Assembly: GCA_030248225.1 (NCBI GenBank)
Contig: JASANE010019391.1
Coordinates: 1-64,000, forward strand
Direction: 5' to 3'
Source of the DNA: Trileptium ribeirensis
Taxonomy: Eukaryota > Nematoda > Enoplea > Enoplida > Thoracostomopsidae
DNA: 64,000 bases
This document shows, in pieces, positions 22,238 through 50,933 of the stretch (positions are counted from its first letter, which is position 1; the number at the start of each line of letters is the position of its first letter). The notes beneath the pieces are model-generated. The model worked only from the letters and a program-made list of their open reading frames with translations, was not told where the DNA came from and made no database searches. The position numbers and the translations under genes were made by a program.

Positions 22238-22241
22238 CAAT
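22238..22241. repeat. Target-site duplication CAAT, left copy
   Basis: CAAT immediately precedes the TG of the 5' LTR and recurs directly after the CA of the 3' LTR. Four-base duplications are usual for Ty3/Gypsy integrases. Confidence 0.85.
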
Positions 22242-23825: not shown

Positions 23826-23899
<74 letters not shown>

Positions 23900-29576: not shown

Positions 29577-30791
29577 ATGGACTCTAACAGTAATCATAAC
29601 GGAGATTTGGAGACGAGTGACTTCTTCGGCGCGACTGATGGACCGATGGAGGACACCGTACGGACTAGAACTCGACCGGCTGTAACTGCCGGCGAACGAC
29701 CGTTAACGCCGCCACCACCCCGACCGACTGGACACTTGCGTCGTGGAGAATTTGCCGAAGCGCTCGGTGCGGACGCAAGTGCCACGAATGCGATCTTACA
29801 CCACTTGACCACCCAGTCCACTGGTCCTCCAATGATACCGTTAAGGGACATGCCGACCTTTGATGGGAAACCCGGAGGTCAGGATTTCGAGGATTGGGTT
29901 CGTATGTACAACCGTCTCGCTAACGCCAATGGTTGGGACGATCGCCGAAAGTTAATTTGTGTACCTGCTCTCTTGCGTGGACCGGCAAGGGAGGCCTTCG
30001 AAGGCCTTCCACCGGCGAAGCGCCAAAGTTTTCTAGGACTCGTCGCTAACTTACGCTTTTTGTTTTCGTCTTCTCGTAGGCCTGAGAAATCACTATCAGG
30101 ACTTTGCACTAGGCAACAAGGAGCAAACGAACCAGTCGCAATGTATGCCCTCGAGCTGCAGAAGTTGTGTGATCGCGCCTTCCCCGACATGGAGGACGAG
30201 CAACGGGACACCATGCTACGTATGTTCTTTCAGAGGGGTTTGAGACCAGAAGTGCGCAGGCAAGTCCTTAATCAGATCCATGAGTGCGAGACGTTTCGCG
30301 ATACGGTAGGTGTCGCCAAGCGATACGAGGATGCAAATGCTGCTTGCCCCGATCCAGACGCTTCGGTTACTAGCAAGCCCCGCACTAAGACAGTAAACTC
30401 ACTCCTTGAGGAGGGAGGTGAAGGTTTGATCACACAACTCCAGACCATGATTGAAGAACACCGCAAGGCAAACGATAGTAATGGTGACACAATTAGTCGG
30501 TTGCTAGAGGTAATTGATAAACGAGCTGAAAACACGCGTCAATTAAATGCTCTCGCGCCGCCGTTTGTGCCTGGCTCGCCTGCTGCGCCACCGTGCCTGC
30601 CGATACCGCATATCACTTGCTACCGCTGTGGAGAACCAGGACATGTCATGCGCGATTGCCCGCATCCCGCCCGCTATCCGCCAGCCGCCAACAACGTGCC
30701 GCGTAACGTCGAATCGGTGCCAGCTTATGTTGCTGGCGCTGTCCGTCGAGAGCCAATGCAGTACCAGCCGAGGAACTACGGAGGAACCTAG
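29577..30791 (+). CDS. gag: Gag polyprotein (capsid and zinc knuckle)
   Basis: It has 404 codons from ATG at 29577, the first good start after a long leader. The central region (about residues 90-250, from PTFDGKPGGQDFEDWV onwards) has the layout of the Ty3/Gypsy retrotransposon gag (capsid) family, including the conserved ALLRGPAREAFEGLP helix. A CCHC zinc knuckle, CYRCGEPGHVMRDC, lies at residues 348-361 and would bind genomic RNA. The N-terminus is acidic, then proline-rich. The frame ends at TAG 30789-30791, but the same frame stays open beyond it for another 330 codons of similar composition, so either the stop is read through, as in some retroviruses, or it is a nonsense change in this copy. 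Confidence 0.9.
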   Translation: MDSNSNHNGDLETSDFFGATDGPMEDTVRTRTRPAVTAGERPLTPPPPRPTGHLRRGEFAEALGADASATNAILHHLTTQSTGPPMIPLRDMPTFDGKPGGQDFEDWVRMYNRLANANGWDDRRKLICVPALLRGPAREAFEGLPPAKRQSFLGLVANLRFLFSSSRRPEKSLSGLCTRQQGANEPVAMYALELQKLCDRAFPDMEDEQRDTMLRMFFQRGLRPEVRRQVLNQIHECETFRDTVGVAKRYEDANAACPDPDASVTSKPRTKTVNSLLEEGGEGLITQLQTMIEEHRKANDSNGDTISRLLEVIDKRAENTRQLNALAPPFVPGSPAAPPCLPIPHITCYRCGEPGHVMRDCPHPARYPPAANNVPRNVESVPAYVAGAVRREPMQYQPRNYGGT

Positions 30792-32309: not shown

Positions 32310-34542
32310 ACTTGCTTATTTGCCTAAGTTAGGTTGCGCTTGCAGTCTTAGTGAATTATTGGCGGATAATGATGGATGTGATATTGATGTAATTGAGTGC
32401 TATTTTGAACCGGCCAATTATAGCACCGATGGACTTGAGGTGACTTTCCCGACCTCATTGGCAAGGGGTACCACGGTTATTGGGTCCTTCCTTGATGCTG
32501 ACCGGGGCCGCCCTTGTCACCTGTATCCAAGCAGAGGTAGCAGCGGGTTCGCGACCGTTCGCACCGATGAAGCGGGTATGATCGTTGGGGCTGAAAGTAT
32601 TGCTCGGGGTCTGCCCAGATACTGGGATGTTGATGGCGGAGTGGCAAATAAAGGCCGTCCATCGCATTGTGAGGCTTCCGTTGCGCCAAGCGTTGCTGAA
32701 GCGCGCAGTAACGTTCCCCATGCTGAGCTAAGTTTTTTCAATGACTTGCGTAATGAAGTTGATGTGGATAATGATGTTGTTGAGCAGAAGTGTAGTGAAT
32801 TAAGGGAGTCGGTTGAACTCCTACTTGAACAAAGTGGATCCACAGCGAGCGATGCGAACCATTTAAGCGAAGCGAAAGTGTCTAATCTAACTCAAAGCGC
32901 TGCACATGCACATAGTGATTCTGAGGATGAGCTGGATAGTAAGCCTGAGTATGAAATAACCAACGCTCCTGATGACTCCGACAATAGTTACGACGAAGCC
33001 AGTGATAGCGAACTCGACGAAGAACAACTGCTGAGCGACGAAGAGTTCTGGGCAAATTGGGAAGATCCGAAGGCCGATTGGTACCGACGTGAACCTACCC
33101 CCAATGAACGAGAGTGGCACCGTGAAGGGGCGTGGGAAACGCGCCGAAACAATGAGTTACAGCGAGCACCATCGGACGACGGTGTCGACTTGAGCCTACG
33201 AAGAAGTCATTTGTCAATCCGCTCCGAAGACGCTGATGATACCACCAGCGAGGATGAGGAGAATGATACCACCGAGGAAGATAGTGATGAGAATGAGTCG
33301 CTGGACGCGAGCGAGTTGAGACTGGCTCGATTGGACGGTAGTGCAGGGGAGGATCCTATCGAAGGGTCGCCGTGTATGCGCTCGGGTAATTTAGGTGAGT
33401 CCACTGACACTTTGTCCAATGTTTCTAGCAGCATCTTGGGATCCGTCGAAGAGGCGCCTTGTATGCCCTCGGGTAACTCGGATAGCCCGCTTAAGAAATC
33501 TAAGACAGCTGAGGATGAATCAGTCGAAGGGAGACCAAGTATGTCCCCGGGTAATTCGGAGGAATCCGTAGTCATAGTCAGCGAACATTCAGACGCTTGT
33601 ATGGGACGAAGACAGCTACTTAACTTTGTACAGGACGCTAACGACGAACGATCGCGCCGACTGGATGCGCAATTGCATAGCATGTACGGACTTTACCTTA
33701 CTAACGACACCCCGATTGAACGAGGGCGCGTTCGCCCGTTAACGGCGAATGAACGCAATCGTATTATTGGACCGGACACATTGTTTACAGCTTCTACTGA
33801 TCATGCCGAGACCCCGAATTATCAATATCCGCGCATTGAGGTGACAAGAAATTCGAGCCCCTTTGTCGCGGAGTGTCTTATTCCGATTAACTTTAGAGCA
33901 GGTGAGATAAACGCTGACTTTGGACAGGCTATGGTGCTACAACCCCAGGCTCTTTTCTATAGAAGGGTTGTGGTAGCCATGGAGCAATTGAACAACCTGA
34001 GTAGGCTTTTCGACGTTCGTTTCGACTGTAGTGAGGACGCAGCGCTTCAACGAGATTCTGCCATGTTGAGCAGCATTTTAGGTATGGCCTCCCCTATTGA
34101 TCACCGTGTAACTGGGTTATACCTCGATCCAGTGGCTCTCGCTTCGTTGGAACTCCTCATGGAATTGTTGGGTCAATGCGTGAATGGCCACACGCTCCAG
34201 CAAGTCATGGAGAAGGAATTTGAGGCAGAGCTAAGCAAGCACCCAATATGTCAGGAGTGTAAGAGGAGTCATGCCCGACCAACATCGAGCGTCGATCCTT
34301 GCTGTCATTTTGTAGGACACCACGGAAAGTGGAACTACCAAGGTACCTTAAGCACTGCTTGCGCGTCTATCCGCATTGACGGGTATATAATACCTAACTG
34401 GCGCTACTACATTGGTATACAGACGCCTCGAATGCAACGGCTCCCCGTGCTGCCAACATCGACCTGCATGAGATGCCGAGCGAAGCGCCTCAGTTGTTGG
34501 AATTTATCTATAAGAATCAGGGTAGTGAAGGAGTCCCGATAA
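32266..34542 (+). CDS. Long acidic ORF of unknown function (gag-env interval)
   Basis: 758 codons counted from a GTG that merely opens the frame; a true start is not evident, and it is probably part of a longer polyprotein. Residues about 210-370 are extremely Asp/Glu/Ser-rich (EDSDENESLD-like). Three imperfect repeats of (I/V)EGxPxMxxGN lie near 33358, 33448 and 33529. Near the C-terminus, Cys/His pairs (CQECKRSH, CCHFVGHH at about 34248-34325) could bind zinc. The frame changes by -1 into the following ORF between about 34410 and 34542. I do not recognise a homologous family. Confidence 0.55.
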   Translation: MGRTAARVVPCVAYELAYLPKLGCACSLSELLADNDGCDIDVIECYFEPANYSTDGLEVTFPTSLARGTTVIGSFLDADRGRPCHLYPSRGSSGFATVRTDEAGMIVGAESIARGLPRYWDVDGGVANKGRPSHCEASVAPSVAEARSNVPHAELSFFNDLRNEVDVDNDVVEQKCSELRESVELLLEQSGSTASDANHLSEAKVSNLTQSAAHAHSDSEDELDSKPEYEITNAPDDSDNSYDEASDSELDEEQLLSDEEFWANWEDPKADWYRREPTPNEREWHREGAWETRRNNELQRAPSDDGVDLSLRRSHLSIRSEDADDTTSEDEENDTTEEDSDENESLDASELRLARLDGSAGEDPIEGSPCMRSGNLGESTDTLSNVSSSILGSVEEAPCMPSGNSDSPLKKSKTAEDESVEGRPSMSPGNSEESVVIVSEHSDACMGRRQLLNFVQDANDERSRRLDAQLHSMYGLYLTNDTPIERGRVRPLTANERNRIIGPDTLFTASTDHAETPNYQYPRIEVTRNSSPFVAECLIPINFRAGEINADFGQAMVLQPQALFYRRVVVAMEQLNNLSRLFDVRFDCSEDAALQRDSAMLSSILGMASPIDHRVTGLYLDPVALASLELLMELLGQCVNGHTLQQVMEKEFEAELSKHPICQECKRSHARPTSSVDPCCHFVGHHGKWNYQGTLSTACASIRIDGYIIPNWRYYIGIQTPRMQRLPVLPTSTCMRCRAKRLSCWNLSIRIRVVKESR

Positions 34543-37500
34543 CCACTTTTGTCCAGTACACAATGAACCACATAGAGTTCACCGACGAATCCCATAGACG
34601 GGATCGCCTAGTGCTTCTGTGCGCTCGCTTGAGACTCCTGAGACGCCCTGCTAGCGTTAATCTGCTTCAAATTGAGTGCGGTATGACTATAGGCGAACAC
34701 GTAGAAGTAGATTACCTGATTTCGGAACCGTGTTCACTTCAACGCAGCAGTACCAGTAGCTCTACTCAAGACCTGGACGAACAGCTGGCCCTAGCGATGG
34801 CCGACTGTTTAAACACGTCCGAAGAGGATCTCGATAAGCAGAATGAACCAACTGTAGGGAATATCCGACCAGTTGATCAGGAAACCCCGAGTGGAACTGA
34901 CGAACAAATAGTGGACAGTGAAGATGAATCAGAGCCTCCCCGAAAGATGGCTCGACCCTCTTCACCTGGCTTGAATAGCGGATTAGGTCAGAATACAGGT
35001 ATGCGGAAGGTTTGTACCATCTTACTGTTACTTTGGCTTTCGACGTTGAGCTCCACGCACGCCACGCTCTCGCCTTTCAGCGATGCAATCTCGCGACTAG
35101 GTGCGTTTGTGAATCGCCAAGTAGGTGTCGTTGTCGAACCGCAAGGTTTGGTAATCACCTCTGATCAGACCACGCACTTGCCAGTAGTCCTGCAGCTATC
35201 ATTGAGAGACTGCGAACGCAAATCCGACCCCTACGTAAGCAATGTTTGCCCGCCGTATGAAGCTAACGGTTCCTGCCGAGCTGATTGCTGCAGGAAGGCG
35301 AACTGTACTGAGTACCCGCAGCTGCACTCGACCTTGAGCGCTCTAGAACGCGAATTGGACGATGCATACCACGGCATACTAGACACTAACTACTACTCGC
35401 TACTTGTGCATTCCTTCTGCGTAGAGAACGAACACCTGTGTGACCTTACCAACCGCCGACAAAAACGCTTCGCAAGCCTTATCGCCGCCGCTGCCGGCGC
35501 CGTTTCTGGTTTTCTAGGTTTAGGAATGGCCTTCGCTAACGGCGTCCATATTAATAACGTACGCCAGCAAGTGACTGTTCTCGAAAAATTTATGCGCGAG
35601 ACGAATGACGTCTCTTTTCGGAACACTAAGGCAATAAAGCAATTAACCCGCGCTAATGAGGACATTTATGCATTTCTGCACCACAGCATGCAGGAGGTAG
35701 TCTCCATGATTGAACAGGTCCGCTGTGCTGACCAGAAAGAGGTCACGCACGTGCATCATCAATTGATTGACCACATACTTCGAGCGAACATGCGCTCGTC
35801 GGTACAGGCCATCATGGAGTCTATGTTAAATAGTGAACTTTCCCCTGCTGTTATCGATGTTGTCATGCTACGACGACTCTTCGCCATGGATCCCCGCATT
35901 TCTAAAACCATTCTGATGCGAGAACCCAGTCTAGCATACCAGTTTGGACGAGTGATGCCCGTAAGTGTAGATCTAACCGGATTTCGCTTTGGCTTTATTT
36001 TGCAGCTACCTTTGCCTAAACGCAGCGATGTTCGACCTTATTTCCGAGTCTACAACACTGGTTGGAACGCTCCCGACACGCTAACGCAGTTGAGACTACC
36101 GCTACCGCAATACGCAGCCAGACTAGGACATGCGCGCTTCGAGTCGCTGAATTTAGGAGCATGCAAGCACAGACCCGGAATTGCTTTTTGCGCACCCCAC
36201 GCGTTGCTAACTGATCACAGTACAAATTGCCTAGAATGGATCATTGCGGGTGAATTCGTGCCTGAATCCACCAAACACGCATGCAGCAACCGCACGCTTA
36301 TCGGCCCACTCGCCAACGATACAGCCGTACACACAACTATTCAAGGTGTTCTAATTAGGACCAGTGAACCTGAAGTTATACTGACTAATCGTAGACAGCT
36401 CGCTCACGTAACCTTAGGCAAGGCCATTAAAGTCCCGCCTAACGGAATTCTATGGTTCCCCCATGGAAATTATACGCAGTTAGTAGTAGGTTCGATCGTA
36501 CTAACAAACATGCTAAAGCCAGAGGAAATTACCATCAAATTCGGACCGAATATTATTATTGACCGGCTCTCCGGCCTTAAACTAACACCTTTGACCTGGA
36601 GTTCACTCGACGATGCGAAGGCGACAAACTTACAGGTAGCTCAGATAGCCAAGGAACAAGTTCAAAAGATAGTTAACTTTCCTGCCTTAGAGTACACCGG
36701 ACTTTCACCTTACTTTATAATAACCATCATCGTTAGTGTAATTAGTCTGGTCTACTGCATGACCAAGTGTAAGCTCTCTCCTAAGTACGCGTACTATCTA
36801 CCCCGATGGCTGCCATGCCGCGGGAGGCTGATCAAAACTGACGGGAAATCCCCAAAAGCCATTAGATGGGTTAGAGCCGACAAAAGAGGCCCAAGCGCAC
36901 CACCGGAGGAGGAGACCACACCCCGAGTTTCGCCGACCGAGGTTTCTATTGTACCTTCGGGGACGCCGCGCGTGTCCGTTGGGTCCAATCGTGCCCCGCG
37001 TCGTTCCAACAGATTACTGACAACCCGTGCCTCGTCCGAGGGAGAACTTGTATTCATTGAGGACGACGAATTATTCGCTGCTCCTACCCGTGACTTACGC
37101 CGTGGACCCCGACAAGGTATGTTCACCAGACAATTAAACACTATGAATGCAGGCAATACTCCACTTCTCATCAACGCAACTATACTTGGCACCCCCGTCA
37201 CGACACTTGTAGACTCAGGAGCTGATGTCTCAATCATGTCACAAGCCCTAGCCGCCCGTTTAGGTCTAGTACCCAGAGACACGAACACCACTCGCATAGT
37301 ATCGGCCACACAACAGGAACTGACAATTAGTGGAGTAGTGAAGGCACCAATTACTATAGGCTCGCTGAGCACTCCATGCGACTTCCAAGTAACTACCGAC
37401 ACCCCCTATGAATGCATCTTAGGCACTGATTTTATGGCTTTACTACCGTACGTAGCCATAAATTTCAAGGACCGCTGCTTGGAATTATCCAACGGAACTG

Positions 37501-38423
37501 AGAACTGTTCCGCCCCCTTTGCCGACCAAGGAGACTATCGACCGCCCGTCATTAACGTAGTATCCAGGAAATATACACAGGTACCGCCGAACACAGAACT
37601 AATCATCAACGCTATTCCCGAGATCACACAACCGCCTACTGGCCAAGCACTATTTGTACCAGACCCCTTCATTAGGGACATCGCCATAGCTCACGCTTTG
37701 GTACTCACTGGTCGACGCATGATTCCAGTAGCAATGATAAACTTTGGAAACATACCCGTTGCAATACACGCAGGACAAACAATAGGACACATCGAGATGC
37801 TTGACGACAACAAGGTCGAGCTCTTGTACGACAGCAACAAGCGTCTACTCCAACTCGGACCTCCTCAACACATTAAACAATGCAACCGCATAGAAGTTAC
37901 ACGCGACAATGTAGTGCAGGTCATAAACGACCAGAAGAAAACGATCGATACAGAACGATCCATACAGGTACTGAGCAAAATCGATTTTGGACAGACCACT
38001 CTTAATTCCTATGAACTGAAACAACTGAAGACAACTATCTCCGAAAACGCCGACATATTTAGCGTACACCCATTCGACTTTGGAAGATGTGGTGTACATC
38101 AGCATAGGATAACTACAGGGTACGTGAAACACATCAAACAAGTGCCCTATCGCTTGGCACATTCTTTACGCGAACCCTTGAGGGAAGAACTAAACAACAT
38201 GGCAGAAGCAGGCCTTATAACACCATCTGATTCACCATGGGGTTCCCCCATAGTGTACGTCACTAAGAGTGACGGCACTTTACGTTTATGCGTGGATTTT
38301 CGCAAACTTAATGTGGTCGCCGAACGCGATCTCTACCCGTTACCCCGCATAGACGACATATTAGGATGCCTGCGAAACACTAAATTCATGTCGAGTTTAG
38401 ACTTAAAGGGTTTTGGCAATTAG
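34473..38423 (+). CDS. Env-like/protease/RT fusion ORF (1316 codons)
   Basis: A single open frame contains, in order, an acidic lead (codons 1-176), an env-like glycoprotein (about 177-800), a basic linker, an aspartic protease (about 890-1010) and the N-terminal part of reverse transcriptase (about 1180-1316). There is no stop between the membrane anchor and the protease. The frame ends at TAG 38421-38423 inside the RT palm, where a one-base change of frame leads into the next ORF. The ATG at 34473 is only the first Met; coding similarity of composition extends upstream in this frame to about 34415. Having env between gag and pol differs from the gag-pol-env order of errantiviruses and retroviruses. 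Confidence 0.85.
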   Translation: MPSEAPQLLEFIYKNQGSEGVPITTFVQYTMNHIEFTDESHRRDRLVLLCARLRLLRRPASVNLLQIECGMTIGEHVEVDYLISEPCSLQRSSTSSSTQDLDEQLALAMADCLNTSEEDLDKQNEPTVGNIRPVDQETPSGTDEQIVDSEDESEPPRKMARPSSPGLNSGLGQNTGMRKVCTILLLLWLSTLSSTHATLSPFSDAISRLGAFVNRQVGVVVEPQGLVITSDQTTHLPVVLQLSLRDCERKSDPYVSNVCPPYEANGSCRADCCRKANCTEYPQLHSTLSALERELDDAYHGILDTNYYSLLVHSFCVENEHLCDLTNRRQKRFASLIAAAAGAVSGFLGLGMAFANGVHINNVRQQVTVLEKFMRETNDVSFRNTKAIKQLTRANEDIYAFLHHSMQEVVSMIEQVRCADQKEVTHVHHQLIDHILRANMRSSVQAIMESMLNSELSPAVIDVVMLRRLFAMDPRISKTILMREPSLAYQFGRVMPVSVDLTGFRFGFILQLPLPKRSDVRPYFRVYNTGWNAPDTLTQLRLPLPQYAARLGHARFESLNLGACKHRPGIAFCAPHALLTDHSTNCLEWIIAGEFVPESTKHACSNRTLIGPLANDTAVHTTIQGVLIRTSEPEVILTNRRQLAHVTLGKAIKVPPNGILWFPHGNYTQLVVGSIVLTNMLKPEEITIKFGPNIIIDRLSGLKLTPLTWSSLDDAKATNLQVAQIAKEQVQKIVNFPALEYTGLSPYFIITIIVSVISLVYCMTKCKLSPKYAYYLPRWLPCRGRLIKTDGKSPKAIRWVRADKRGPSAPPEEETTPRVSPTEVSIVPSGTPRVSVGSNRAPRRSNRLLTTRASSEGELVFIEDDELFAAPTRDLRRGPRQGMFTRQLNTMNAGNTPLLINATILGTPVTTLVDSGADVSIMSQALAARLGLVPRDTNTTRIVSATQQELTISGVVKAPITIGSLSTPCDFQVTTDTPYECILGTDFMALLPYVAINFKDRCLELSNGTENCSAPFADQGDYRPPVINVVSRKYTQVPPNTELIINAIPEITQPPTGQALFVPDPFIRDIAIAHALVLTGRRMIPVAMINFGNIPVAIHAGQTIGHIEMLDDNKVELLYDSNKRLLQLGPPQHIKQCNRIEVTRDNVVQVINDQKKTIDTERSIQVLSKIDFGQTTLNSYELKQLKTTISENADIFSVHPFDFGRCGVHQHRITTGYVKHIKQVPYRLAHSLREPLREELNNMAEAGLITPSDSPWGSPIVYVTKSDGTLRLCVDFRKLNVVAERDLYPLPRIDDILGCLRNTKFMSSLDLKGFGN
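35001..36840 (+). CDS. env: Envelope-like class I fusion glycoprotein region
   Basis: From the Met at 35001 there is a clear signal peptide (basic start, then TILLLLWLSTLSSTHA), a Cys-rich first subunit, a furin-type site RRQKR at 35454-35468, and directly after it an Ala/Gly-rich hydrophobic stretch like a fusion peptide. A heptad-like helical region follows, then a Cys-containing ectodomain with NxT/S sites, and one membrane anchor (IITIIVSVISLVYC, about 36718-36760) with a basic tail. This is the organisation of baculovirus F-like and errantivirus envelope proteins, which mediate membrane fusion for entry. CAG just before the ATG could be a splice acceptor for a subgenomic mRNA. This region itself has no internal stop. 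The family assignment rests on architecture, not on a search. Confidence 0.75.
37100..38423 (+). CDS. pol: Aspartic protease and N-terminal reverse transcriptase
   Basis: The protease shows the catalytic LVDSGADVSIMS motif at about 37206-37241 and the C-terminal ECILGTDFM flap/core motif at about 37411-37437, as in retropepsins that mature Gag and Pol. RT follows with VPYRLAHSLREPLREELNNM, then WGSPIVYVTKSDGTLRLCVD and FRKLN (about 38238-38313), and PLPRIDDIL. The frame breaks at about 38410, in the conserved segment after SLDL, by loss of one base relative to the family motif. The TAG at 38421-38423 ends translation there. Confidence 0.93.
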
Positions 38424-39331
38424 AATTAGACCCCGAGACCATGGAAAAGACTTCCTTTGTCACTGTCCACGGACAATACGAATACAACGTTCTACCCTTC
38501 GGGTTAAATTCTTCTCCAGGCGCCTTCCAGAGGTGCATGTCAATCATCTTAAAAGGCTTGGAATGGGAACGATGCCTCATTTACATAGATGACATATTAG
38601 TTTTCTCAGCCACATTCAAACAACACCTAGCAGATCTCATCGCAGTCTTTGATAGGTTCCGTAAGGCTAACCTCAAACTGAAACCCTTCAAATGCCAATT
38701 CGGACAGAAACAATTAAAATACCTTGGACACATTATTAGCTCCGAAGGAGTTAAACCCGACCCCGAGAAAACCGCTGCAATCGATAACTACAAACGCCCA
38801 GAGACACTTAAACAATTACAGAGCTTCTTAGGACTTGTAGGTTACTATCACAAATTCATACCACACTATTCCGAGATTTGTGAACCACTTAACGCCCTTC
38901 GACGCAAGGACAACGAATTTAAATGGACACCGCAATGCGAGGAAGCATTTGGAAAGTTACGCAAAGCACTGGTACAAGAACCACTACTCATTTATCCGGA
39001 CTTTTCCAAACCCTTCATACTAGAGACGGACTCTTCTGGATACCCTTTAGGAGCCGTGCTTTCGCAAAAGACCGATAAGGGGACACTGCCTATCGCCTAC
39101 GCTAGCAAGTCACTGGTGGACTACCAGCGCCGATACCCCGCAATCGAGACTGCAGCCCTTGCTATCAGATGGGCCGCTTTACATTTCAGGCATTACCTGC
39201 TGGGACACGAATTCCATGTCGAGACTGATCATAAGCCACTTAAGGCATTATTTGAGAGACCACCGCGAAACTCGCGCCTAGCTCAATGGCGTAATGAGTT
39301 ACTCATGGAATTTGGTGGGTTTCAATATTGA
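38424..39331 (+). CDS. pol: Reverse transcriptase (catalytic part) and RNase H
   Basis: The frame continues RT after the break. It keeps PFGLNSSPGAFQRCM, the catalytic YIDD box at 38582-38593, LGHIISSEGVKPDPEK and the thumb motif LQSFLGLVGYYHKFIP. RNase H follows with DSSGYPLGAVLSQ, IAYASKSL, the catalytic Glu in YPAIETAALAI and the TDHKPLKAL motif. It ends at TGA 39329-39331 because one base shifts the frame; coding continues in another frame from about 39310 (IEYRPGKANANADGLSRDP). All polymerase catalytic residues that I can check are present. Confidence 0.95.
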
Positions 39332-42300
39332 ATATCGCCCTGGTAAGGCCAATGCCAACGCAGACGGACTCTCACGCGATCCCCGACATGACGTCTACTT
39401 CTCTGATTCCGAGGACGAAGCCGAATTTGACGCTCAGGACCATACTCGGATGGTTGCTGTAGCCGTAAAAGGACAGGATCGTGGCAAGGGCAAAGCTTCT
39501 GCCAAACCGCCACGGAGACTCCCTACTGCAGGAGCTTGGAAACGACTTACGCGACAGTTAATGGGACTTCCCCCGGACGCCCCCGTTAACCTCCCACCCG
39601 AATACGTTAGGGAACGCTTCTACCGTATGTTCGGAGGGCCAGCATATGATCCTCTGCCGGACCCAACGCGTTTCATTTTAGGTGGAGACATCGACGACCC
39701 ATGGCCCGAAGTAGTCGAGATGCCCTGGAAGCGCTCGACCGCTCCCGGAGCGCCGACTGAACCAGCCCCAGCCCGAGAACCTGCAAATGACTCAGCCCCT
39801 GGACCCTCATCAGCCCCTGACCCATTCGTTAGACCTACGTTGCCACAAGAACCCCCGACTGCTCCAACACCGCCCGCACCTGGCGCTACAAGCGAAAGCT
39901 CGACGCGTGCCACTGCTGGTACACCTGACCCCACTAGACCCCGAACATTACCTACCACTTCTAGGAAAAGATATGGTGGTTTACCAGAAGTCGAGGAGTT
40001 CGACACCTTAATTAGGGTCGCCTACGCATGTGGACCGCGAGTACGACTACAACGCCCTGAACAGGTTTATGACACTGGTGAACACATATATTTACCGCAC
40101 TTCCAACAATATGAGGGGAGAAATCTTCTCAACTACATACCTTACATCCAACGTAGAGACAAACAATTTGGCCCCATATGGTGGTACTTACATACTCCAC
40201 AACCACCAGTTGACGAAAAGGCAGCGACTGCTCTCAAATTAGAAGCCCATCACTACCGCCTCTGCCCTGACACAGCCATTCTTTACTTACATCCCATCAT
40301 GCCTCACGACCACAGACCTAAATTATGCGTACCTCGACTGCTTATACGACAGATACTTAAACACGAACACGACACTCTATTCGGTGGACACCCAGGTAGG
40401 GACTGTCTACTAAGCAAACTCAAACAATTTTATTATTGGGAGACAATGGGTAAGGACGTCGACGAGTATGTAAAACGATGCGTGCTTTGCCAGCGATCAC
40501 GAAATTTACCACAAAATGTTCGAGCCGTGCTCGGCGAAAACCCGCTGGCTAGCGCCCCTATGCACCGCATGTTCGTCGACATATTGGATACTCGGGTTCT
40601 GTCCCGAAAAGGAAATAGGTACGTTATTGCCTTCATTGACCAATTCACTAAGTTAGTTATCGCCGCCGCATTGCCTGACCAAACGGCTAAGAGTGTAGCT
40701 CGAGTTTTCGTCGAAGACGTAGTGTGCCGTTACGGCGCTCCTGAGGAACTAGTTTCCGACCGAGGAGGATGCTTCGTTTCAGAAGTCATGGAAGCCCTGT
40801 GCGCTAGGCTACACACTTTTAAGAGAGAAACTTTGAGTTACAATCCGAAGGCAAATGGGGAGATCGAGCGTTTCAATCGCACCTTACTATTCCTCTTAAG
40901 AGTAGCTTTACCCGAGAATGACCACACCACTTGGGACAAAGTTCTACCCTACTGTATAATGTCCTACAATTCCGCAGTACACTCCTCTACACACTACCCA
41001 CCTTTCATGCTCATGCACGGATTCCAACCCCGTGTACCGGGTGGAATCGAGACGCAAACTGATTGGGGACGCTATCCTGGAGCAGAAGCTTATCGTGCTA
41101 ACGTACAACGATGGTTAGCCACGATCAGAGACCGAGCCTATCGCTCCATGGAATCCGCAAAGAAATATAGGAAGCGTTACTACAATCGCAAAATCAAGGT
41201 CCCAGACTATCGAGTTAATGATCATGTTTGGGTCTACCGATACTATACAACACCTGGACTATCACGTAAACTGGAACGCAGATGGTGCGGACCGTACCAA
41301 ATTACTAAGATAATGCTGCCCTGCATCTGCGTCAAACTCCCCGGACAACCCAATGCGTCCGACCATGTAGTCCATGTTAATCGCACCAAACCTTGTTACA
41401 GACAACTTAGCAGTTTTCCGGACATGGCTGATTTATTAAAGGCCGTACCTCCCGCTTACATTGAGGCTGCACTACAGGAACCCGGAGAAATTATCCTTGC
41501 TGATAAATATTTCGCCAGGGAACTACAGGCCGCCGATCCAGAGGCAGTCGACCGGTTGCGCCAAGACATCGACGGTGCATCCGATACAGCTAGTGTGGAG
41601 ATCGGCGATCCTAATCTAGTATACACGCAAGCTCAGGCTGACATACACCGCGCCGCAGTGGAACAATTAGCCAGTCAAGCCCCAGCTCAAAGTTCATCCG
41701 GAGCTTTACAACAAAACAGGTTACCTATTTGTGATCCCGATAGAACCCCCGACACCGAATGGCCCGCTATCTCGCAAGAACTCGCTACCCAAGATCCCGC
41801 TAAGTTGCCTTACGCGCTTGATAAGCCCCCAGGCTCATTCTCTCCAGAATACGGACAACATACTGCTCCAGTTACCATCAGGGAACAAGGGCGATCCGTC
41901 AGAACAGAGGAACCAACTAGACCCTTAGCTCTGCCACGCTCAGGCAATGGCCGCTCGCTACGACCATTCAACGTCACCGACTTAGGCCTCGTTGAACTAC
42001 TTGCCTCGCAGGATCCAGATGAGTCCTCACCCCGCACGCCCGAACAAGCCCTATCTCCAACTTCAGCCATAGAACACGCAGTCCAGACCTCGCCGCTTAC
42101 GCCTGCCCAACGCCGCGCCGCAGCCGCTACACAAACTTACCGCAGTCCCCGCTCACAACGCCTGATCACCGACACGGATAAATCACCGGTACCGTACCGC
42201 CTTCACCGCGAATCCCCTGAGTTACATGAACTCCGATATCCCAAACCTCGACACGTTTATTCCGCTCCACCTACTCCGCTCCCACACACGCCTCTAATGC

Positions 42301-42734
42301 CTTTAGGATTCGAAGCTACCCTAGAGGAGTATATCCCAGACGAATGGACTACACCCTACTCGACACCTCCTAGACCACCACCTACACAATCCGCCCCAGT
42401 CTATAGCCAGCCTCCCGTAGAACCAGCTCCAACCCGAAAACCCGTGCCTAAACCGCGACAGAAACCAGCTAAAACCCCCGCACCTGCTAGCGAACCCGTG
42501 TCTTCTGTAAGTTCTGAAGACACTTCACCCGAAACTGTGGAATCCCCAACACCGCCGCATCGATGGACAATCCCACCCTTACTCTCACCTCTCGCGGAAC
42601 GAAAACCTAGGACCCCACCACACCAGTGGATAACCCCAGCTGCGGAACAGGAGACTGGTACCCCTCAGGTTTCTTTTTCGGTCGCTGGACCACTAGGAAA
42701 CAAAACCAACAAGCAGAATGGGAATGGGCATTAG
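39294..42734 (+). CDS. pol: RNase H end, integrase and proline-rich tail
   Basis: 1146 codons. After the RNase H/integrase junction comes a Pro/Ala-rich linker (about 39740-39960), then integrase: an HHCC zinc finger (HEHDTLFGGHPG to CVLCQRS, about 40360-40500), the catalytic Asp in MFVDILD (about 40570), the second Asp in VSDRGG (about 40755) and the Glu in NGEIERFNR (about 40857-40883). A GPY/F module (RRWCGPYQI, about 41279) follows and there is no chromodomain. The C-terminal 450 residues are a low-complexity Pro/Ser/Thr/Glu-rich tail, unusually long for an integrase. The frame stops at TAG 42732-42734; similar composition continues in another frame from about 42626. Confidence 0.93.
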   Translation: MSYSWNLVGFNIEYRPGKANANADGLSRDPRHDVYFSDSEDEAEFDAQDHTRMVAVAVKGQDRGKGKASAKPPRRLPTAGAWKRLTRQLMGLPPDAPVNLPPEYVRERFYRMFGGPAYDPLPDPTRFILGGDIDDPWPEVVEMPWKRSTAPGAPTEPAPAREPANDSAPGPSSAPDPFVRPTLPQEPPTAPTPPAPGATSESSTRATAGTPDPTRPRTLPTTSRKRYGGLPEVEEFDTLIRVAYACGPRVRLQRPEQVYDTGEHIYLPHFQQYEGRNLLNYIPYIQRRDKQFGPIWWYLHTPQPPVDEKAATALKLEAHHYRLCPDTAILYLHPIMPHDHRPKLCVPRLLIRQILKHEHDTLFGGHPGRDCLLSKLKQFYYWETMGKDVDEYVKRCVLCQRSRNLPQNVRAVLGENPLASAPMHRMFVDILDTRVLSRKGNRYVIAFIDQFTKLVIAAALPDQTAKSVARVFVEDVVCRYGAPEELVSDRGGCFVSEVMEALCARLHTFKRETLSYNPKANGEIERFNRTLLFLLRVALPENDHTTWDKVLPYCIMSYNSAVHSSTHYPPFMLMHGFQPRVPGGIETQTDWGRYPGAEAYRANVQRWLATIRDRAYRSMESAKKYRKRYYNRKIKVPDYRVNDHVWVYRYYTTPGLSRKLERRWCGPYQITKIMLPCICVKLPGQPNASDHVVHVNRTKPCYRQLSSFPDMADLLKAVPPAYIEAALQEPGEIILADKYFARELQAADPEAVDRLRQDIDGASDTASVEIGDPNLVYTQAQADIHRAAVEQLASQAPAQSSSGALQQNRLPICDPDRTPDTEWPAISQELATQDPAKLPYALDKPPGSFSPEYGQHTAPVTIREQGRSVRTEEPTRPLALPRSGNGRSLRPFNVTDLGLVELLASQDPDESSPRTPEQALSPTSAIEHAVQTSPLTPAQRRAAAATQTYRSPRSQRLITDTDKSPVPYRLHRESPELHELRYPKPRHVYSAPPTPLPHTPLMPLGFEATLEEYIPDEWTTPYSTPPRPPPTQSAPVYSQPPVEPAPTRKPVPKPRQKPAKTPAPASEPVSSVSSEDTSPETVESPTPPHRWTIPPLLSPLAERKPRTPPHQWITPAAEQETGTPQVSFSVAGPLGNKTNKQNGNGH

Positions 42735-43790: not shown

Positions 43791-44957
43791 ATGGCGATGA
43801 ATATTATTGCAGGAAAATCCAACCGTCAAACCAACAAAATGGAACAAAACCCGTCGCCGCGTGTGCCATTTTACACCATCAACTACGCCGCTCCCATCGA
43901 AACAATTCTATCGAAAGGCACACGCTGGCCAGAACTATTAAATATGGCTCCGTTGGGTCAAACTGTCGAACAATACCCAATCGAATACTCCTCAACGGAG
44001 CAAGGCTATCAGCTCCTCGTCACCTATTTATTTGACGAGGATCAAGCCAGACAAGATATCTCCGATCTCAAGTTGGGATCTCGAGACGTCAAATCTATCT
44101 CCCGGAGAAACAAAGCAAAGTTCCTCGATCCCGAAACAACGGAGCGCCTTCGCCCGGCCCTTGCGCACCTCATGCGAACGGTGCTCCTCGAAAAGTTCAA
44201 AATACCAAAATTCCAAAACGTCCTACTCGCCACTGGCCATGCCCAGTTGCTCGAGGCGAATCGCACCGACTCATTTTAGGGAATCGGTCTTGGACCGGAA
44301 GACATCGCCTTTAACCGACGTCCACGGCCATGTCACAACGTCATGGGCCGCCTCTTAGAAGAAATACGGACCTTTATCCGCCATGGAATTGCCAACTGGC
44401 CCAAACTCCTTGTTCTGGGCGACAATATGGCCGCACCGCTAGTGAAAATGGCCACTTCGAAGGGATGGTTCGCCATCGCTTGGCCCGGTGCTACCGTGCA
44501 GTTCCTGATCCGTCTGGCGACGTGCATCGCGACGCCTCAGACCGAGACTATCGTGATACTTGGCGGATATAGGGCCGCCCTTCGGTCCAAACCATTCGAA
44601 GGTCGTCTCTTGGATACACCAAGCAAAGTCATGCGCCGTGTGCGCCGGCACATTTGCTCTTTCGATTACCTCCTAAACAATAACGCTCGAGCTATCATAG
44701 CCCCACCACCACCAACATGGGACGTTGGACAGGACGACGTGAACACATGGACCCAGGAATTTACTTAATTGTTTCAAGACATCAAACGCCAATTCCCCGA
44801 CCGAGCACAGAAGTCCGCAATGCCACTCTACCCGCCGGAACTAATGGAAGTAGGAGCATGGGAAACGGGCCCCAGCGACAATCCACCCGCGGAGCCCCAA
44901 ATCACAGAGCCATATATTGGCTTCCTTCGTAAGTGGGTGGAAACGCAAATCTCATAA
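43791..44957 (+). CDS. NADAR (YbiA/DUF1768) accessory ORF with an SGNH-like C-terminal segment, two in-frame stops
   Basis: One frame runs from ATG 43791 (or ATG 43839) to TAA 44955-44957, interrupted by TAG 44277-44279 and TAA 44766-44768. The first part has NADAR hallmarks: an N-terminal FYTINYAAP strand, the STEQGYQLL helix with the conserved Glu and Tyr-Gln, a long helical middle, VLLATGHAQLLEAN, then after the TAG a GIGLG...HNVMGRLLEEIR ending. The TAG sits where the family has the Trp of its WG motif. NADAR proteins such as E. coli YbiA are N-glycosidases; the DarG1 type removes ADP-ribose from DNA guanine. After about 44376 a different domain begins (separate entry). The ORF occupies the 3' position where errantiviruses carry env. 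It may counter host ADP-ribosylation; that role is inference. Confidence 0.82.
44376..44957 (+). CDS. SGNH/GDSL-hydrolase-like segment (tentative), C-terminal part of the NADAR ORF
   Basis: Following the NADAR part in the same frame is an alpha/beta pattern: a strand LLVLGDN (about 44406-44426, resembling GDS block I but with Asn for Ser), a WPGAT segment (about 44481), a strand TIVILGGYRAAL (about 44547-44582, resembling block III) and IIAPPPPTWD (about 44694-44723). Such order recalls SGNH hydrolases, which occur in some retroelement accessory proteins. The nucleophile Ser is not visible, so it would be inactive or misassigned. TAA 44766-44768 interrupts the frame, which stays open to 44957. 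Confidence 0.35.
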
Positions 44958-45571: not shown

Positions 45572-45684
45572 TGTAACAGGGCCGCTTCGGCCCTGTCACG
45601 ACCACTTCAAGGCGTTCGCACTCAAAATTGTAACGGGATGCGTCGGCACGCGGCTGGTTGTACATACAAAGGTCGCATTATGTC

Positions 45685-46180
45685 GGTTAACCATTTTGTA
45701 TAAAATATCGCTTATCATAATGTAACATTTTGTGTAAGAAAACATCGATCATATTGATGAACCATCTTGTATAAAAATGTTATTATATTACTTAACCGTT
45801 TTGTATAAAATGTCGCTTATATTATTTAACCGTTTTGTATAAAATGTCGCTTACATTACTTAACCGTTTTGTATAAAATGTCGCTTACATTACTTAACCG
45901 TTTTGTATAAAATGTCGCTTACATTACTTAACCGTTTTGTATAAAATGTCGCTTACGTCATTTAACCGTTTTGTATAAAATGTCGCTTACATTACTTAAC
46001 CGTTTTGTATAAAATGTCGCTTACATTTCTTAACCGTTTTGTATAAAATGCCGCTTACATTTTAATTACATTTCTTAACCGTTTTGTATAAAATGCCGCT
46101 TACATTTTAACCGTTTTGTATCGAATGTCGCCTACATTACTCAACCATTTTGTGTAACGTGTCGTTTATAAAATGTTGCT
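45685..46180 (+). repeat. Tandem array of about 34-bp units in the 3' LTR
   Basis: TTAACCGTTTTGTATAAAAT followed by GTCGCTTACATTAC recurs about a dozen times, the inner units nearly identical and the outer ones diverged. The 5' LTR has one unit at about 22357-22383. Each unit contains TTTTGTATAAAAT, an AT-rich partial palindrome. The array has expanded in one LTR or collapsed in the other. Confidence 0.9.
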
Positions 46181-47243
46181 TATGTTACCTGTCTTGTAGC
46201 ATGCCGTGTACTTTTGTAGCAATTCATGACTTTGTTGGGGACGAGTGTTACAATTAGGAAGAGGATGAGGAGATGAGCCGCCTCGACCGACTTGTAAGAC
46301 CGAAAATAGCGCCTTACGTCGACGGAAGTTGGAAAACAGTCGAACGCCCAACGTGTAGGCATCATGTGTTATAGGATTGACGGTCGCAACCGGCCGGGAA
46401 TAGGAGGCCCCTGGCTGCACATTCGAGGAAGCACGTTTATTAGGACCGAAACCAAAAATATTAGATTTACTTGGTTTTAGCAATATCCTAGGTAATGGTT
46501 ACAGCAAATAACAAGTAAAACTAAGCGGAATCACACTTTTGGTGGTCTTCGTAAGCATGCGGAACGACGGACGCCGGGTTAATTCGAAGGCCCGCCACCG
46601 TCTACGGTGCCGTGATCCGGAACTTAACCACAACAGACGGGTAGAACACGTTGGGGAACTTCCTAAACCGCTCCGGACAACGCCAGAACTTCGCTTGTGA
46701 TACGTAGAGACAATCGCTACTTACGCTAAGTAGGATTGTCACCGTGGAACCCGGACTATCACTTTCCATGCAGTTAGGACATATTATATATAAAGTATGT
46801 ATATGTGTCTATTTATGTGTGTGCCCTGTGGACAACTTATTAGGCAAAACCGCCTTGTTTCTGTAGCTTATTGCAGTATGCAACCGATACAAGACCCCAC
46901 TTTCCGACATTCCCGTCGCCATACCCCGCGTCGGAACCGGCGCATGCGACCCCTCGTTTATTCATCGTAACCAGCGGAATCCAACAATACGCGCCGAACC
47001 TCCGTCCGAGTCCCCGTTGACCCGCTGTAGTCACTCAAGGATGCCTAGAAAGCTGTTGTCAACTGCTGATGGGCACCGATAATTCGAGATTTTTTCGCTC
47101 TACTCTAAAATGGGCGAACCGCCCCTCATTGGATTCGTCTCGATGAGACATTTCCAAAAATACCCGGCGGGTCTCGATCCGCCGCCCCGTTAACCCGCAC
47201 GACCAACAAACGCGCCCCCCACTGTAGCCATCACTCTCTCTAA

Positions 47244-47718
47244 TGCGCGACTAAACTTAAAATGACCCCGGCAACCATCCTATTTTGTATTTTTGTATAA
47301 AATTTGCTAAGGAACGCTTTTTGGCGATTGGAATTCGACGTAAAGCTGTTCGCGAACACAGCCCTCGCGATTGAAATCTATCCATTTTGTGTTCGCTAAA
47401 ATTGAAGTAAAATTACCCGAATGTTTGAGAACGAAAATTTGTCGATTTGATTGTGACGTCACTTTTGCATTAAATTTGTTCGCGAACACTGTATAATCCA
47501 AATTTAAATGATAATACATTAGGGAACAGAATTTCTGCAAACCTAAATCGCCAAAATTCTGTTCCATAATTTCTGGCACTTGATTTGGTTTTGCCAATTT
47601 TCGGTTAGCGAAAAACCGAATGAAATTAAGCCTGTTTTCCGTAACAACGGTTTGCGATTCGATATCGGTAATGACAGAATAGGATGGTTGGCGGGGTCAC
47701 CTTAAGTTTACTCACGCA
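47244..47718. mobile_element. PIF/Harbinger-type MITE inserted in the 3' LTR
   Basis: 475 bp, absent at the matching place in the 5' LTR (CTCTCTAATCGCCGCG). It is flanked by the 3-bp duplication TAA (47241-47243, 47719-47721). Terminal inverted repeats of about 40 bp start TGCGCGACTAAACTTAAA at the left and TGCGTGAGTAAACTTAAG at the right, both continuing GACCCCG.CAACCATCCTATT. TWA duplications are characteristic of PIF/Harbinger. An internal 96-codon minus frame has no transposase motif. The empty site in the other LTR proves insertion after, or during, the life of this copy. Confidence 0.9.
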
Positions 47719-48242
47719 TAATCGCCGCGATTTTAGTACCGTTTTTACTCCTGTCGCCCCAGTAGCGATATCACCCCTCATTTAAATCGTCGTTAGACGG
47801 TGAGTCCAACGATACCCGGCGGGCGTCGCCCCGCCCAACCGTTAACGCAGGAGAGCCCGCTAAAGCTCCCCATACTAATACACAGCCGAACCCATAAGTG
47901 GGTTCCGACCCGTTACTAAGTATACCCCCTTTGTGTTTGGTATCAATCAACCCCGTTTTCCGTCCTGGGACCGAATCTGACCCCAGCCCCTCGAAATTCC
48001 CTCTGGATTCCCCTTGTCCCGCTACACTTCCCACGCCCTCCTCGTGTCCTCGCTGTCCTTTTCGCTTTTGTCCTCGTTCTCTCTCTAACCGACGTTTCTG
48101 GTCGGTTTTCCTTTTGTCGTCTTGATGTTGTTGTGTCGGACGTGCTGTGTGTGTGTTTATTCTGAGCGACCTTTCTGTCGCTCAGGACGCCATTATGTCT
48201 AGTGTGTGCGCGCTGTGTGTATTTGTATGTGTGTAGGTATGT

Positions 48243-48288
<46 letters not shown>

Positions 48289-50929
48289 GGATATCGATAT
48301 GTATAAGGACACGACATAAGGATGGACAGACACGGACACGACACACAAAATTCGTTAAAATTCAGAGTTTCACGGACGGACAAAACACGAACGGATAGGA
48401 CGAACGGGGGGCGACTTTAGGGCCCTCCCGCGGACTCTAGGGGCCCTGGAACAGGGTGCTTGACAAATTAGAAATATGTAAGGACTTACCCCGTCTCTGG
48501 TCTTGAGACGGGCACGCTCCCGCCGGTGGTTCCCCCCGGCGCGACTTTAAAGCATACATACTCGTCTGAAAATTGGAAATTAGCTTGATTTTTCTTGACG
48601 TTCTAAGGTGTCCCTCGCGAGTTGGGGTCACTTCTCAAATTCAATTTAGCTTAATTAGGAGGGCGGTAAGTCTAAGATCACAAAGGCCGAGTCGATGTTT
48701 GCCTACTGGGATGGGCTGGTAAAGGAGACAGTCCAAAATTCGAGCAGATTGTCACGCTAATTGGGGCTGAAGAAGGAAATTGCGTGACCCAAAAGTATTT
48801 GTAATAGTTTAAGTTAAGCTGGGACCGGAAACAGTGCAAATTTTGTTAGTTTAGGATCTGATTTCGCTGGACATCCGGCGATAAGGACGGGAAATAGGGA
48901 CTTCAAAATTTGCTTTTCTTGGGAAAATTTGGACAAAAGTCACAGATGGTCAGCTTCCGAGTACTCGGAAGATTCAAACTTAAAGTCGGCAAATTTAATT
49001 GAAGCCGACTCTCCTTAAGGACATCGACGGTTTACGGTAGCCGTCAAGATTCTATTTTCCGGAAGTGTCCCCAATTGGCCACTGAACTAAAACCCAAGAA
49101 AAAGGGGCGTTGCCCGACCAACAACGATTTAACGGCGACAAAATCGCCATCGTAACATACAGGCAGAAATTTCGAGGTTACGACCGACGCGTCGAATCTT
49201 GGAATCAGTTTGACTTCGGCAGCGCGGAGTTCGGTCGACTTTACTGACCGGCTCCGACGCGTGACTTTTCAGTGTTAATTGTTCTCTGTTTTCAACTGCT
49301 CGGTGGCTTTATTTTTCTTCGCTTTTCGCTTCGTTCGCTGGATCGGTCGTGAAGGATTTCCGCGCAGGTATATACCTCGCTAAGGGGGTTCAGCTGGTGC
49401 TGCCCCGAGGATCGACATCTGTAAGTGTGAGAGAGGATCGGTGTTTGCAGGGGTTTAGTTTCCCTGCTGAGCGAACTGTAACAGGCCGTTCGTATAGGTA
49501 CCCCGTGAACGTAGCGTGTCCCCTTCGCATAAACAGACTCAACACCTTTTGAGCTCAACCCGCGGTTCCCCGACGAAATGCTACACACAGCCCCAACTGG
49601 AATAAACACTCAGGACCGAATTCCGAGGTGAGAGCGCGAGGCGACTTAGGGCACGTAGGTACCGAGCAGGAGGAAAGCCAGTCAGCCGAGTCGAAGTCAG
49701 TCTGATTCCCCGTGGTCATTGGTAAGGCACACCGAAATGGACGCCTTTCGTCCAGGTTTTACATGATCTGCGGTCTTGAGTTAGGGCTCTCGAATATTCC
49801 TGAGCTGACCACGGTCAAAAGTTCTTAAACTTGCATATTATTGACATAGGGACTTACTTCACGGCTTGTTGTTTTGGTTTACAAATTTTTAGTTTAGTGG
49901 AACGTTCAATGCCCATGCCGTGTTTGGGTTTGGACAGAAACACAGATTAGGGACGAAGCACTAGCGCCCGTCGGGTTTTAGGAAACCCTTAAAATTTCGT
50001 TATGTTCTCGAGTTAAGAAAATTTGGGACTACAAAAGACAAATCAATTTCTAGGCGCACTGACTTGAGCCTAAGGTTTTATGGAATATTGTCGAGGAATC
50101 GTCTCGGCGTAGTTGTTTAAACCTGATTCTGAAGCAAATAAATAGTCGTAGGCACGGTCGTTCGATACCGAGACGATAGGGAGTTTTTTCTTTTCTGGTT
50201 TGTCCGCATGGACGAGCAGACCCTGTTCGCTATGGCTTGTGTGCGAGAATGTCGCAAGCCCTGACGAGCATGGCCTTCTATCTAACTTGTTTGGCGTTTT
50301 ACCGGAACAAAGGAGTAATATCTAAAGAACACAGTCGAAAATTTACCCCGTCCCCAGCGATAATTTGAAAAGCTCAATAGGGATTTTTCGAATACTATCT
50401 CCGCAATAGAATTTATTGAAAAGCGCAGGCCACGCCATCGATAATCCGACATTAAACACTCAGGGCTTGTCGGAACCCTGTGGGGGCCACATAGGTCAAT
50501 GCTCTAACACGGAGCATACTGCGATTTTAAGCCGGTAACTCAGCTTGAGTTTCAAATTTTCTAGGGACACCTTTACATTTCGTTTCCATACCTATCTCAC
50601 TAAAACTAGAACCAAACAACTTCCGATGAGTCTAAGACAGGGAATAGTGGCTAGGCTCCATGACCTGCGAGCAGGTGTCGGTGCTAGCCTCCCTGGGGGA
50701 CCTCAGAAATCATACCCGATACTAGACACGTGCGCAACCTTTCGGGCGGGGTCCGAACACACCCCGTGAAGCGCGCCTGCGGCCCGCTAAGCTGCGTAGC
50801 TTCTTGGGTCTGACCAAGAATAGGTTAAAAATTTGTATTCACGGTCCACCCTCGAGGTTACGATAGCCGGGGTCGTATGGGCATGGTGTTAGGAAGTTGC
50901 GCCATGCAGCTGCGTCACCGGTTATTACA

Positions 50930-50933
50930 CAAT
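50930..50933. repeat. Target-site duplication CAAT, right copy
   Basis: CAAT follows the terminal CA of the 3' LTR and matches 22238-22241. Confidence 0.85.

What the first reader, a model, noticed from the sequence alone, without database searches (positions are those of the whole stretch)
43791..44957. NADAR (YbiA/DUF1768) domain carried by an LTR retroelement
The 3'-most ORF of the giant element shows the NADAR signature blocks: STEQGYQ, LLATGHAQLLEAN, a WG-motif position (now TAG) followed by GIGLG, and HNVMGRLLEEIR. NADAR proteins are known from bacteria and phages, and in DarTG1 systems they reverse ADP-ribosylation of DNA guanine. I do not recall a described Ty3/Gypsy element with this domain in the env slot. 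A possible role is removing ADP-ribose marks that a host adds to retroelement nucleic acid; that part is inference.
Basis: partly seen in the sequence, partly recalled or inferred. Interest (0 to 1): 0.92.

Follow-up and report, generated by a model that had tools for sequence, protein, structure and literature searches.

The report
Giant retroelement carrying altered NADAR gene

Summary
The frame at 43791-44957 encodes a NADAR domain (PF08719: E 3.7e-7 before the first stop; E 9e-16, over the cut-off, in an uninterrupted copy). It is the 3'-most ORF of a 28,688-bp LTR element (22242-50929; LTR K2P 0.021; TSD CAAT) that, like planarian Burro, has its env-like region upstream of protease and RT. 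It is not a private insertion: 133 of 150 scored matches (own row included) have no stop in the match; 14 of 14 fetched copies share element DNA upstream and 12 of 14 also downstream; 8 of 8 sampled integrase loci without a listed partner carry it too. Median pairwise dN/dS is 0.057. A likely SGNH-like domain follows. Against the eraser idea: 19 of 19 family copies keep E43, E125, D130 and W133 but replace K50, W89 and R93; the K50 equivalent is essential in a bacterial NADAR. NADAR in Gypsy elements is already reported from a brown alga, so this is a new variant. The same genome has NADARs in a second gypsy-linked family with an SF1 helicase (K50 and W89 kept) and in Polinton-like elements. 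Function is inferred.

The parts
22242..28143 (+). 5' LTR (5,902 bp, TGTAAC...TTACA)
   Evidence: self-comparison and end sequences
22238..22241 (+). target-site duplication CAAT, left
29577..30791 (+). gag ORF with CCHC zinc knuckle
   Evidence: Pfam zf-CCHC E 6e-8, Retrotrans_gag E 1.2e-4 (22.7 bits, below its cut-off 24.1)
34473..38423 (+). one open frame: env-like region, protease and start of RT; the pol frame breaks near its end in this copy
   Evidence: ORF list; Pfam gag-asp_proteas E 9.8e-13
34998..36860 (+). env-like glycoprotein region: RRQKR site (from 35457), hydrophobic segment after it, C-terminal TM (36702-36758)
   Evidence: sequence features; no Pfam or PDB family found
38441..39331 (+). 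RT (C-terminal part) and RNase H
   Evidence: Pfam RVT_1 E 6.1e-22, RT_RNaseH_2 E 3.9e-34
39294..42734 (+). integrase (H2C2, rve) and proline-rich C-terminal part
   Evidence: Pfam Integrase_H2C2 E 6.8e-19, rve E 1.1e-11
43791..44369 (+). NADAR domain, interrupted in this copy by a stop at 44277-44279
44394..44730 (+). likely SGNH/GDSL-like domain (GDN in this copy, GDSL in five fetched copies)
   Evidence: fold support from a low-confidence model
44766..44957 (+). second in-frame stop (44766-44768) and C-terminal tail up to the last stop
45572..50929 (+). 3' LTR (5,358 bp)
50930..50933 (+). target-site duplication CAAT, right

Best explanation
The 3'-most ORF of this 28.7-kb Ty3/gypsy-type element is a conserved accessory gene encoding a NADAR domain followed by a likely SGNH-like domain, and its product likely acts as an N-glycosidase-type enzyme on a ribosylated nucleotide other than canonical ADP-ribosyl-guanine, which would benefit the element. 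Shown: the domain match, its place between integrase and the 3' LTR, uninterrupted copies, low dN/dS, and the active-site residues kept and lost. Inferred: the copies keep the residues that in known NADARs hold the distal ribose (E43, E125) together with D130 and W133, but replace K50, W89 and R93, which contact the pyrophosphate. So ribose-side chemistry may persist on a ligand bound in another way, such as a nucleotide signal or an RNA/cDNA adduct. The SGNH-like partner would supply an esterase-type or binding role. The copy in the window is decayed (in-frame stops, broken pol frame).
For: NADAR match: and, over the cut-off; a profile of 7 copies finds the solved NADAR 8bau at E 5.6e-6 and YbiA 2b3w at 0.019. 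Element anatomy. Stable part of the family: 150 scored of 1,766 candidates, 133 of 150 (the window's own row included) without a stop in the match, 82 of these 133 in frames of 388 aa or more; of 14 other copies fetched with flanks, 14 match element DNA upstream of the ORF and 12 also run on 200 bp or more past its end; 41 of 150 integrase rows (own row included) have a listed NADAR 3,384-3,509 bp downstream, and 8 of 8 sampled of the other 109 encode it there too. Selection: median NG86 dN/dS 0.057 for NADAR (105 pairs of 15 copies) and 0.087 for the SGNH-like part (84 of 105 pairs usable). Active site: E43, E125, D130, W133 kept in 19 of 19; K50 is V in 19 of 19, W89 L or T, R93 L.
Against: Retained residues do not prove catalysis; the domain could be a non-catalytic binder. 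W133 and (through water) D130 also contact the pyrophosphate in the P. nicotianae structure, so keeping them does not separate the two readings. R93 varies in other NADARs too (R in 45 of the 115 with a residue there). The SGNH assignment rests on motifs and one low-confidence single-sequence model (mean pLDDT 50). No expression or biochemical data. Copies share ancestry, so the dN/dS pairs are not independent, and dS is saturated in the distant pairs.
Confidence: 0.42

Rival explanations
1. Non-catalytic module: the NADAR fold has become a nucleotide- or RNA-binding part of the element's particle or RNP, as gag-like ORF1 proteins of some LINEs carry NADAR or SGNH domains.
For: K50, W89 and R93 replaced in 19 of 19 copies; the nucleophile position of the GDSL motif varies (GDS, GDN, GDD, GDH); NADAR occurs in ORF1 of oyster Tx1 LINEs (PMC12477816 passages) and a GDSL domain in ORF1 of some LINE clades (PMC5408684 passages); in the nematode RNA-processing protein SNA-3, one of three NADAR domains lacks the catalytic residues (PMC9303266 passages).
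Against: E43, E125, D130 and W133 are kept in 19 of 19 copies across subfamilies, more than a pure scaffold would seem to need.
Confidence: 0.3
2. Canonical eraser: the protein removes ADP-ribose from guanine in element RNA or DNA, countering a host ADP-ribosyltransferase.
For: Guanine-ADPr hydrolysis is shared by the tested NADARs (PMC11543638, PMC11125620 passages; section 12); the genome encodes PARP domains (7 matches on 5 contigs, one spanning the profile); gypsy elements of orchids carry an active RNA-mark eraser, AlkB (PMC9289625 passages).
Against: The K50 equivalent is essential for guanine-ADPr hydrolysis in E. coli C7 NADAR and is V in 19 of 19 copies, against K in 107 of 113 external NADARs with a residue there.
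Confidence: 0.18
3. Passive cargo or recent private capture without function for the element.
For: The window copy itself is interrupted.
Against: dN/dS 0.057 among 15 copies; uninterrupted in many copies and found at 8 of 8 places sampled downstream of integrase.
Confidence: 0.05

Closest known systems
Burro giant LTR elements of planarians (PMC6431247, passages)
   Same: Giant gypsy-type element near 30 kb; env region between gag and pol; very long polyprotein frame (Burro 4,873 aa; here 16 of 150 integrase rows lie in frames of 4,705-4,749 aa); accessory ORFs.
   Different: No NADAR is mentioned for Burro in that paper (0 occurrences); here the extra ORF is NADAR plus SGNH-like and lies 3' of pol. 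RT kinship could not be tested: no Burro sequence at hand.
Ectocarpus NADAR-bearing Gypsy lineage (PMC12477816, passages)
   Same: YbiA-type NADAR carried by a Gypsy LTR element.
   Different: Brown alga; [quoted passage not shown] no SGNH partner or env in the passages seen.
NADAR-bearing ORF1 of Crassostrea gigas Tx1 LINEs (PMC12477816, passages)
   Same: NADAR in an animal retroelement.
   Different: Non-LTR element; ORF1 position.
Bdelloid LTR elements with a GDSL ORF3 (PMC5408684, passages)
   Same: SGNH/GDSL-type ORF in the extra-ORF position of an LTR element.
   Different: Catalytic residues reported intact in those LTR elements; no NADAR mentioned (0 occurrences).
Orchid gypsy elements with AlkB m6A demethylase (PMC9289625, passages)
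   Same: Large (25 kb) gypsy elements carrying an enzyme tied to a nucleic-acid mark.
   Different: Unrelated enzyme with tested activity; plant host.
DarT1-NADAR (DarTG1) antitoxin (PMC11543638, passages and section 12)
   Same: NADAR fold family.
   Different: No DarT partner found; catalytic lysine lost here; E, not D, at the E125 site.

Membership tests
NADAR superfamily (PF08719) | Profile match over the curated cut-off | tested here: met
   56.3-60.1 bits against 35.1 in 3 of 3 open frames of other copies (one full-length); the window's first piece alone is just under it, 31.0
NADAR superfamily (PF08719) | Ribose-side residues E43, E125 with D130 and W133 (P. nicotianae numbering) | tested here: met
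   19 of 19 family copies (numbering)
NADAR superfamily (PF08719) | Pyrophosphate-side K50 and W89 | tested here: not met
   K50 is V in 19 of 19, W89 is L or T in 19 of 19; external NADARs K in 107 of 113, W in 113 of 115 residues
NADAR superfamily (PF08719) | Guanine-ADPr or other N-glycoside hydrolysis | not testable with these tools
   needs biochemistry
YbiA subfamily of NADAR | Glutamate at the E125 position | tested here: met
   E in 19 of 19
DarTG1 toxin-antitoxin | DarT ADP-ribosyltransferase beside the NADAR | tested here: not met
   no such Pfam match in the element ORFs scanned (this copy's frames are broken)
Ty3/gypsy LTR element | LTRs with TSD, gag CCHC, PR-RT-RH-IN order | tested here: met
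Burro-like giant elements | Env-like region between gag and pol, very long polyprotein frame | tested here: met
   env-like features and PR/RT in one frame, downstream of gag; frames of 4,705-4,749 aa around integrase in 16 of 150 rows; that these hold gag and env is inferred from length
Burro-like giant elements | RT kinship with Burro | not tested
   no Burro sequence available
SGNH/GDSL hydrolases | GDS(L) block with catalytic S; G, N, H of the other blocks | tested here: inconclusive
   GDSL in five fetched copies (L046, L049, L051, L052, L053), GDN/GDD/GDH in others; no canonical N block seen (GGY instead); no Pfam match in 4 of 4 such pieces scanned
SGNH/GDSL hydrolases | SGNH fold | tested here: inconclusive

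The most novel reading that the evidence does not exclude
At least three classes of mobile element in one genome (a Burro-like giant gypsy, a second gypsy-linked family pairing NADAR with an SF1 helicase, and Polinton-like elements) independently took up and keep NADAR genes because the host polices invaders with an ADP-ribose or NAD-derived mark or signal; the giant gypsy's NADAR-SGNH protein has been retooled to a new ligand of that system.
Probability: 0.25. Interest if true: 0.88.

Novelty: new variant of a known kind. Interest (0 to 1): 0.64.

Why it matters
NADARs are best known as antitoxins and phage genes, and their role in eukaryotes is open. Here one genome holds NADARs in several unrelated mobile-element classes. 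In the giant gypsy family the gene has a very low dN/dS while lacking the usual ADP-ribose clamp. That makes a testable case that NAD/ADP-ribose chemistry, or a derivative of it, matters in the conflict between this host and its retroelements. It also offers a natural series of NADARs, from usual to altered active site, for finding the true eukaryotic substrates.

Tried and rejected
Rejected: chance resemblance; private insertion; capture of a host gene by this copy alone (same upstream element DNA in 14 of 14 copies, and downstream in 12 of 14; L032 ends 10 bp past the ORF and L042 15 bp before its end).

Led nowhere: protein database searches with the window's first piece and with an uninterrupted copy found no relative at E 0.01 or better; IMG/VR scan none; PDB sequence searches with the single pieces gave only chance rows; SGNH profile against PDB none; single-sequence fold of the NADAR piece was useless (pLDDT 40). 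The FastTree tree (152 sequences; 11 partial or near-duplicate rows left out by me, 8 of the window family among them) puts the window family on a long branch (2.64) with no supported sister (0.35 with P0030), so the origin is unresolved; it does not group with the helicase-linked or the Polinton-like NADARs. Host group not identified: the only COX1 matches, on one contig, carry stops. Env region: no Pfam or PDB family, named from features only. One of four NADAR copies sampled upstream (L058) showed no integrase in the 701 bp fetched.

The claim of novelty rests on library searches (open PubMed Central papers only), and on the rows shown: 20 of 104, 12 of 12, none found, 15 of 511, 25 of 6,033.

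Full report
Anatomy. The window holds one LTR element from 22242 to 50929 (28,688 bp) with LTRs of 5,902 and 5,358 bp, ends TGTAAC...TTACA and a CAAT target-site duplication. Over 4,268 ungapped aligned LTR positions there are 89 differences, K2P 0.021, so the insertion is fairly young. In order: gag with a CCHC knuckle, an env-like region, aspartyl protease, RT, RNase H, integrase, a proline-rich part, and the NADAR ORF. The env-like region shares one open frame with the protease and the start of RT (34473-38423). It is called env-like from features only: an RRQKR site, a hydrophobic stretch after it, and a C-terminal transmembrane stretch; no Pfam or PDB family was found. This order, env between gag and pol, is the one described as a first for planarian Burro (PMC6431247 passages). 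In the genome, 16 of 150 scored integrase matches lie in frames of 4,705-4,749 aa, close to Burro's 4,873. The window copy is decayed: two stops in the NADAR frame and a broken pol frame.

The NADAR call. The piece 43791-44276 matches PF08719 at E 3.7e-7, 31.0 bits, a little under the curated cut-off. Open frames of three other copies, one of them full-length (388 aa), match at 56.3-60.1 bits, over the cut-off. A profile of seven copies finds the solved NADAR 8bau at E 5.6e-6; from its residue spacing I take 8bau to be the P. nicotianae protein of PMC11543638.

Copies. A genome search with the piece gave 1,766 first-look candidates, of which 150 were scored; the scored rows are all at least 78% identical over the match. 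133 of 150 rows (the window's own among them, whose match ends at its stop) have no stop in the matched stretch, and 82 of those 133 lie in frames of 388 aa or more. Of the 14 other copies fetched with flanks, all 14 align to the window element upstream of the ORF and 12 also run 200 bp or more past its end; L032 ends 10 bp past it and L042 15 bp before it. In the reverse direction, 150 of 4,272 integrase candidates were scored: 41 of 150 (own row included) have a listed NADAR 3,384-3,509 bp downstream on the same strand. Of the 109 without, I picked eight by hand, and all eight encode NADAR at that place. Going upstream from four NADAR copies, three of four show the integrase. The ORF is thus a standing part of the family at nearly every place sampled. 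Copy numbers are candidates, not counts.

Selection. Of 24 copy loci (L030-L053), four gave no suitable ORF over 250 aa; of the 20 aligned I dropped five (L042, L043, L044, L045, L048) for frame damage or divergent ends. Among the remaining 15, median NG86 dN/dS is 0.057 for NADAR (105 of 105 pairs), 0.087 for the SGNH-like part (84 of 105 pairs usable) and 0.107 for the tail (55 of 105). The window's own pieces against 12 of the copies give 0.06-0.11 (first piece) and 0.04-0.22 (second). Pairs are not independent and dS is saturated in distant pairs, but the ratio is far below 1.

Active site. Using the P. nicotianae numbering (PMC11543638 section 12; alignment), all 19 family copies in the alignment keep E43, E125, D130 and W133, and all replace K50 (V), W89 (L or T) and R93 (L). 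L042, frame-shifted in this domain, was left out. Of 116 external NADARs, K50 is K in 107 of the 113 with a residue there, and W89 is W in 113 of 115; R93 is variable anyway (R in 45 of 115). The paper reports that K95 of E. coli C7 NADAR, the K50 equivalent, is essential for guanine-ADPr hydrolysis through phosphate coordination, while the two acidic residues hold the distal ribose. The family therefore most likely does not do the known reaction in the known way. Keeping every ribose-side residue argues for a changed ligand over a dead fold, but not strongly; D130 (through water) and W133 also touch the pyrophosphate.

NADAR elsewhere in the genome. A family search gave 2,317 candidates, of which 150 were scored, all over the cut-off. 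Of 28 loci read (8 returned, 20 chosen by me from the remaining 142), 22 share genes with Polinton-like elements and 6 have a different neighbour. Pfam was run on representatives: Pox_A32-type packaging ATPase (L003, L004, L018), integrase with chromodomain (L022), a TBP homologue (L004, L011) and a weak capsid match under the cut-off (L011). The six have a roughly 1,130-1,180-aa protein, or pieces of it, with SF1 helicase domains (AAA_11/AAA_12, scanned in L015) before a NADAR ORF. Two of the six, L017 and L023, show gypsy integrase upstream, 30-39% identical to the window's; no LTRs were found within these 10-kb stretches. The helicase-linked NADARs keep K50 (5 of 5 with a residue there) and W89 (5 of 6). 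The Polinton-like ones keep K50 in 22 of 22 but E125 in only 11 of 22 and W133 in 11 of 22, so altered sites are not unique to the window family. The three groups do not join in the tree. This points to repeated uptake, though the poor resolution of the tree leaves old exchange possible.

Prior art. [quoted passage not shown] GDSL ORFs in LTR elements are known from rotifers (PMC5408684 passages). In the rows I saw there was no paper with NADAR in an animal LTR element, and no paper at all joined NADAR with Polinton. What appears new is the combination: a Burro-like giant element, NADAR fused to an SGNH-like domain, 3' of pol, and with an altered ADP-ribose site. That the host is an animal is an inference from the element types; no taxon was established.

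Noticed in passing
L001-L012, L016, L018, L019, L021, L022, L024-L028: Polinton-like elements with a packaging ATPase and a NADAR gene, some with a TBP (TATA-binding protein) homologue beside it (TBP scanned in L004 and L011); in 11 of 22 the NADAR has F in place of W133.
   Followed up: partly
L013, L014, L015, L017, L020, L023: A second family pairing a ~1,150-aa protein with an SF1 helicase (scanned in L015) and a separate NADAR ORF that keeps K50 and W89 in nearly all; gypsy integrase seen upstream in L017 and L023.
   Followed up: partly
window 45686-46168: 34-bp tandem repeats in the 3' LTR that the 5' LTR lacks; the 5' LTR in turn has about 1.6 kb (25761-27375) not in the 3' LTR.
   Followed up: no
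window 30534-30578: Weak PAM2-like motif (poly(A)-binding-protein ligand, by recall) in gag, E 0.0065, under Pfam's cut-off.
   Followed up: no
P0059 (database protein): A 299-aa protein of unnamed source fuses RNase H (PF00075) to NADAR.
   Followed up: no
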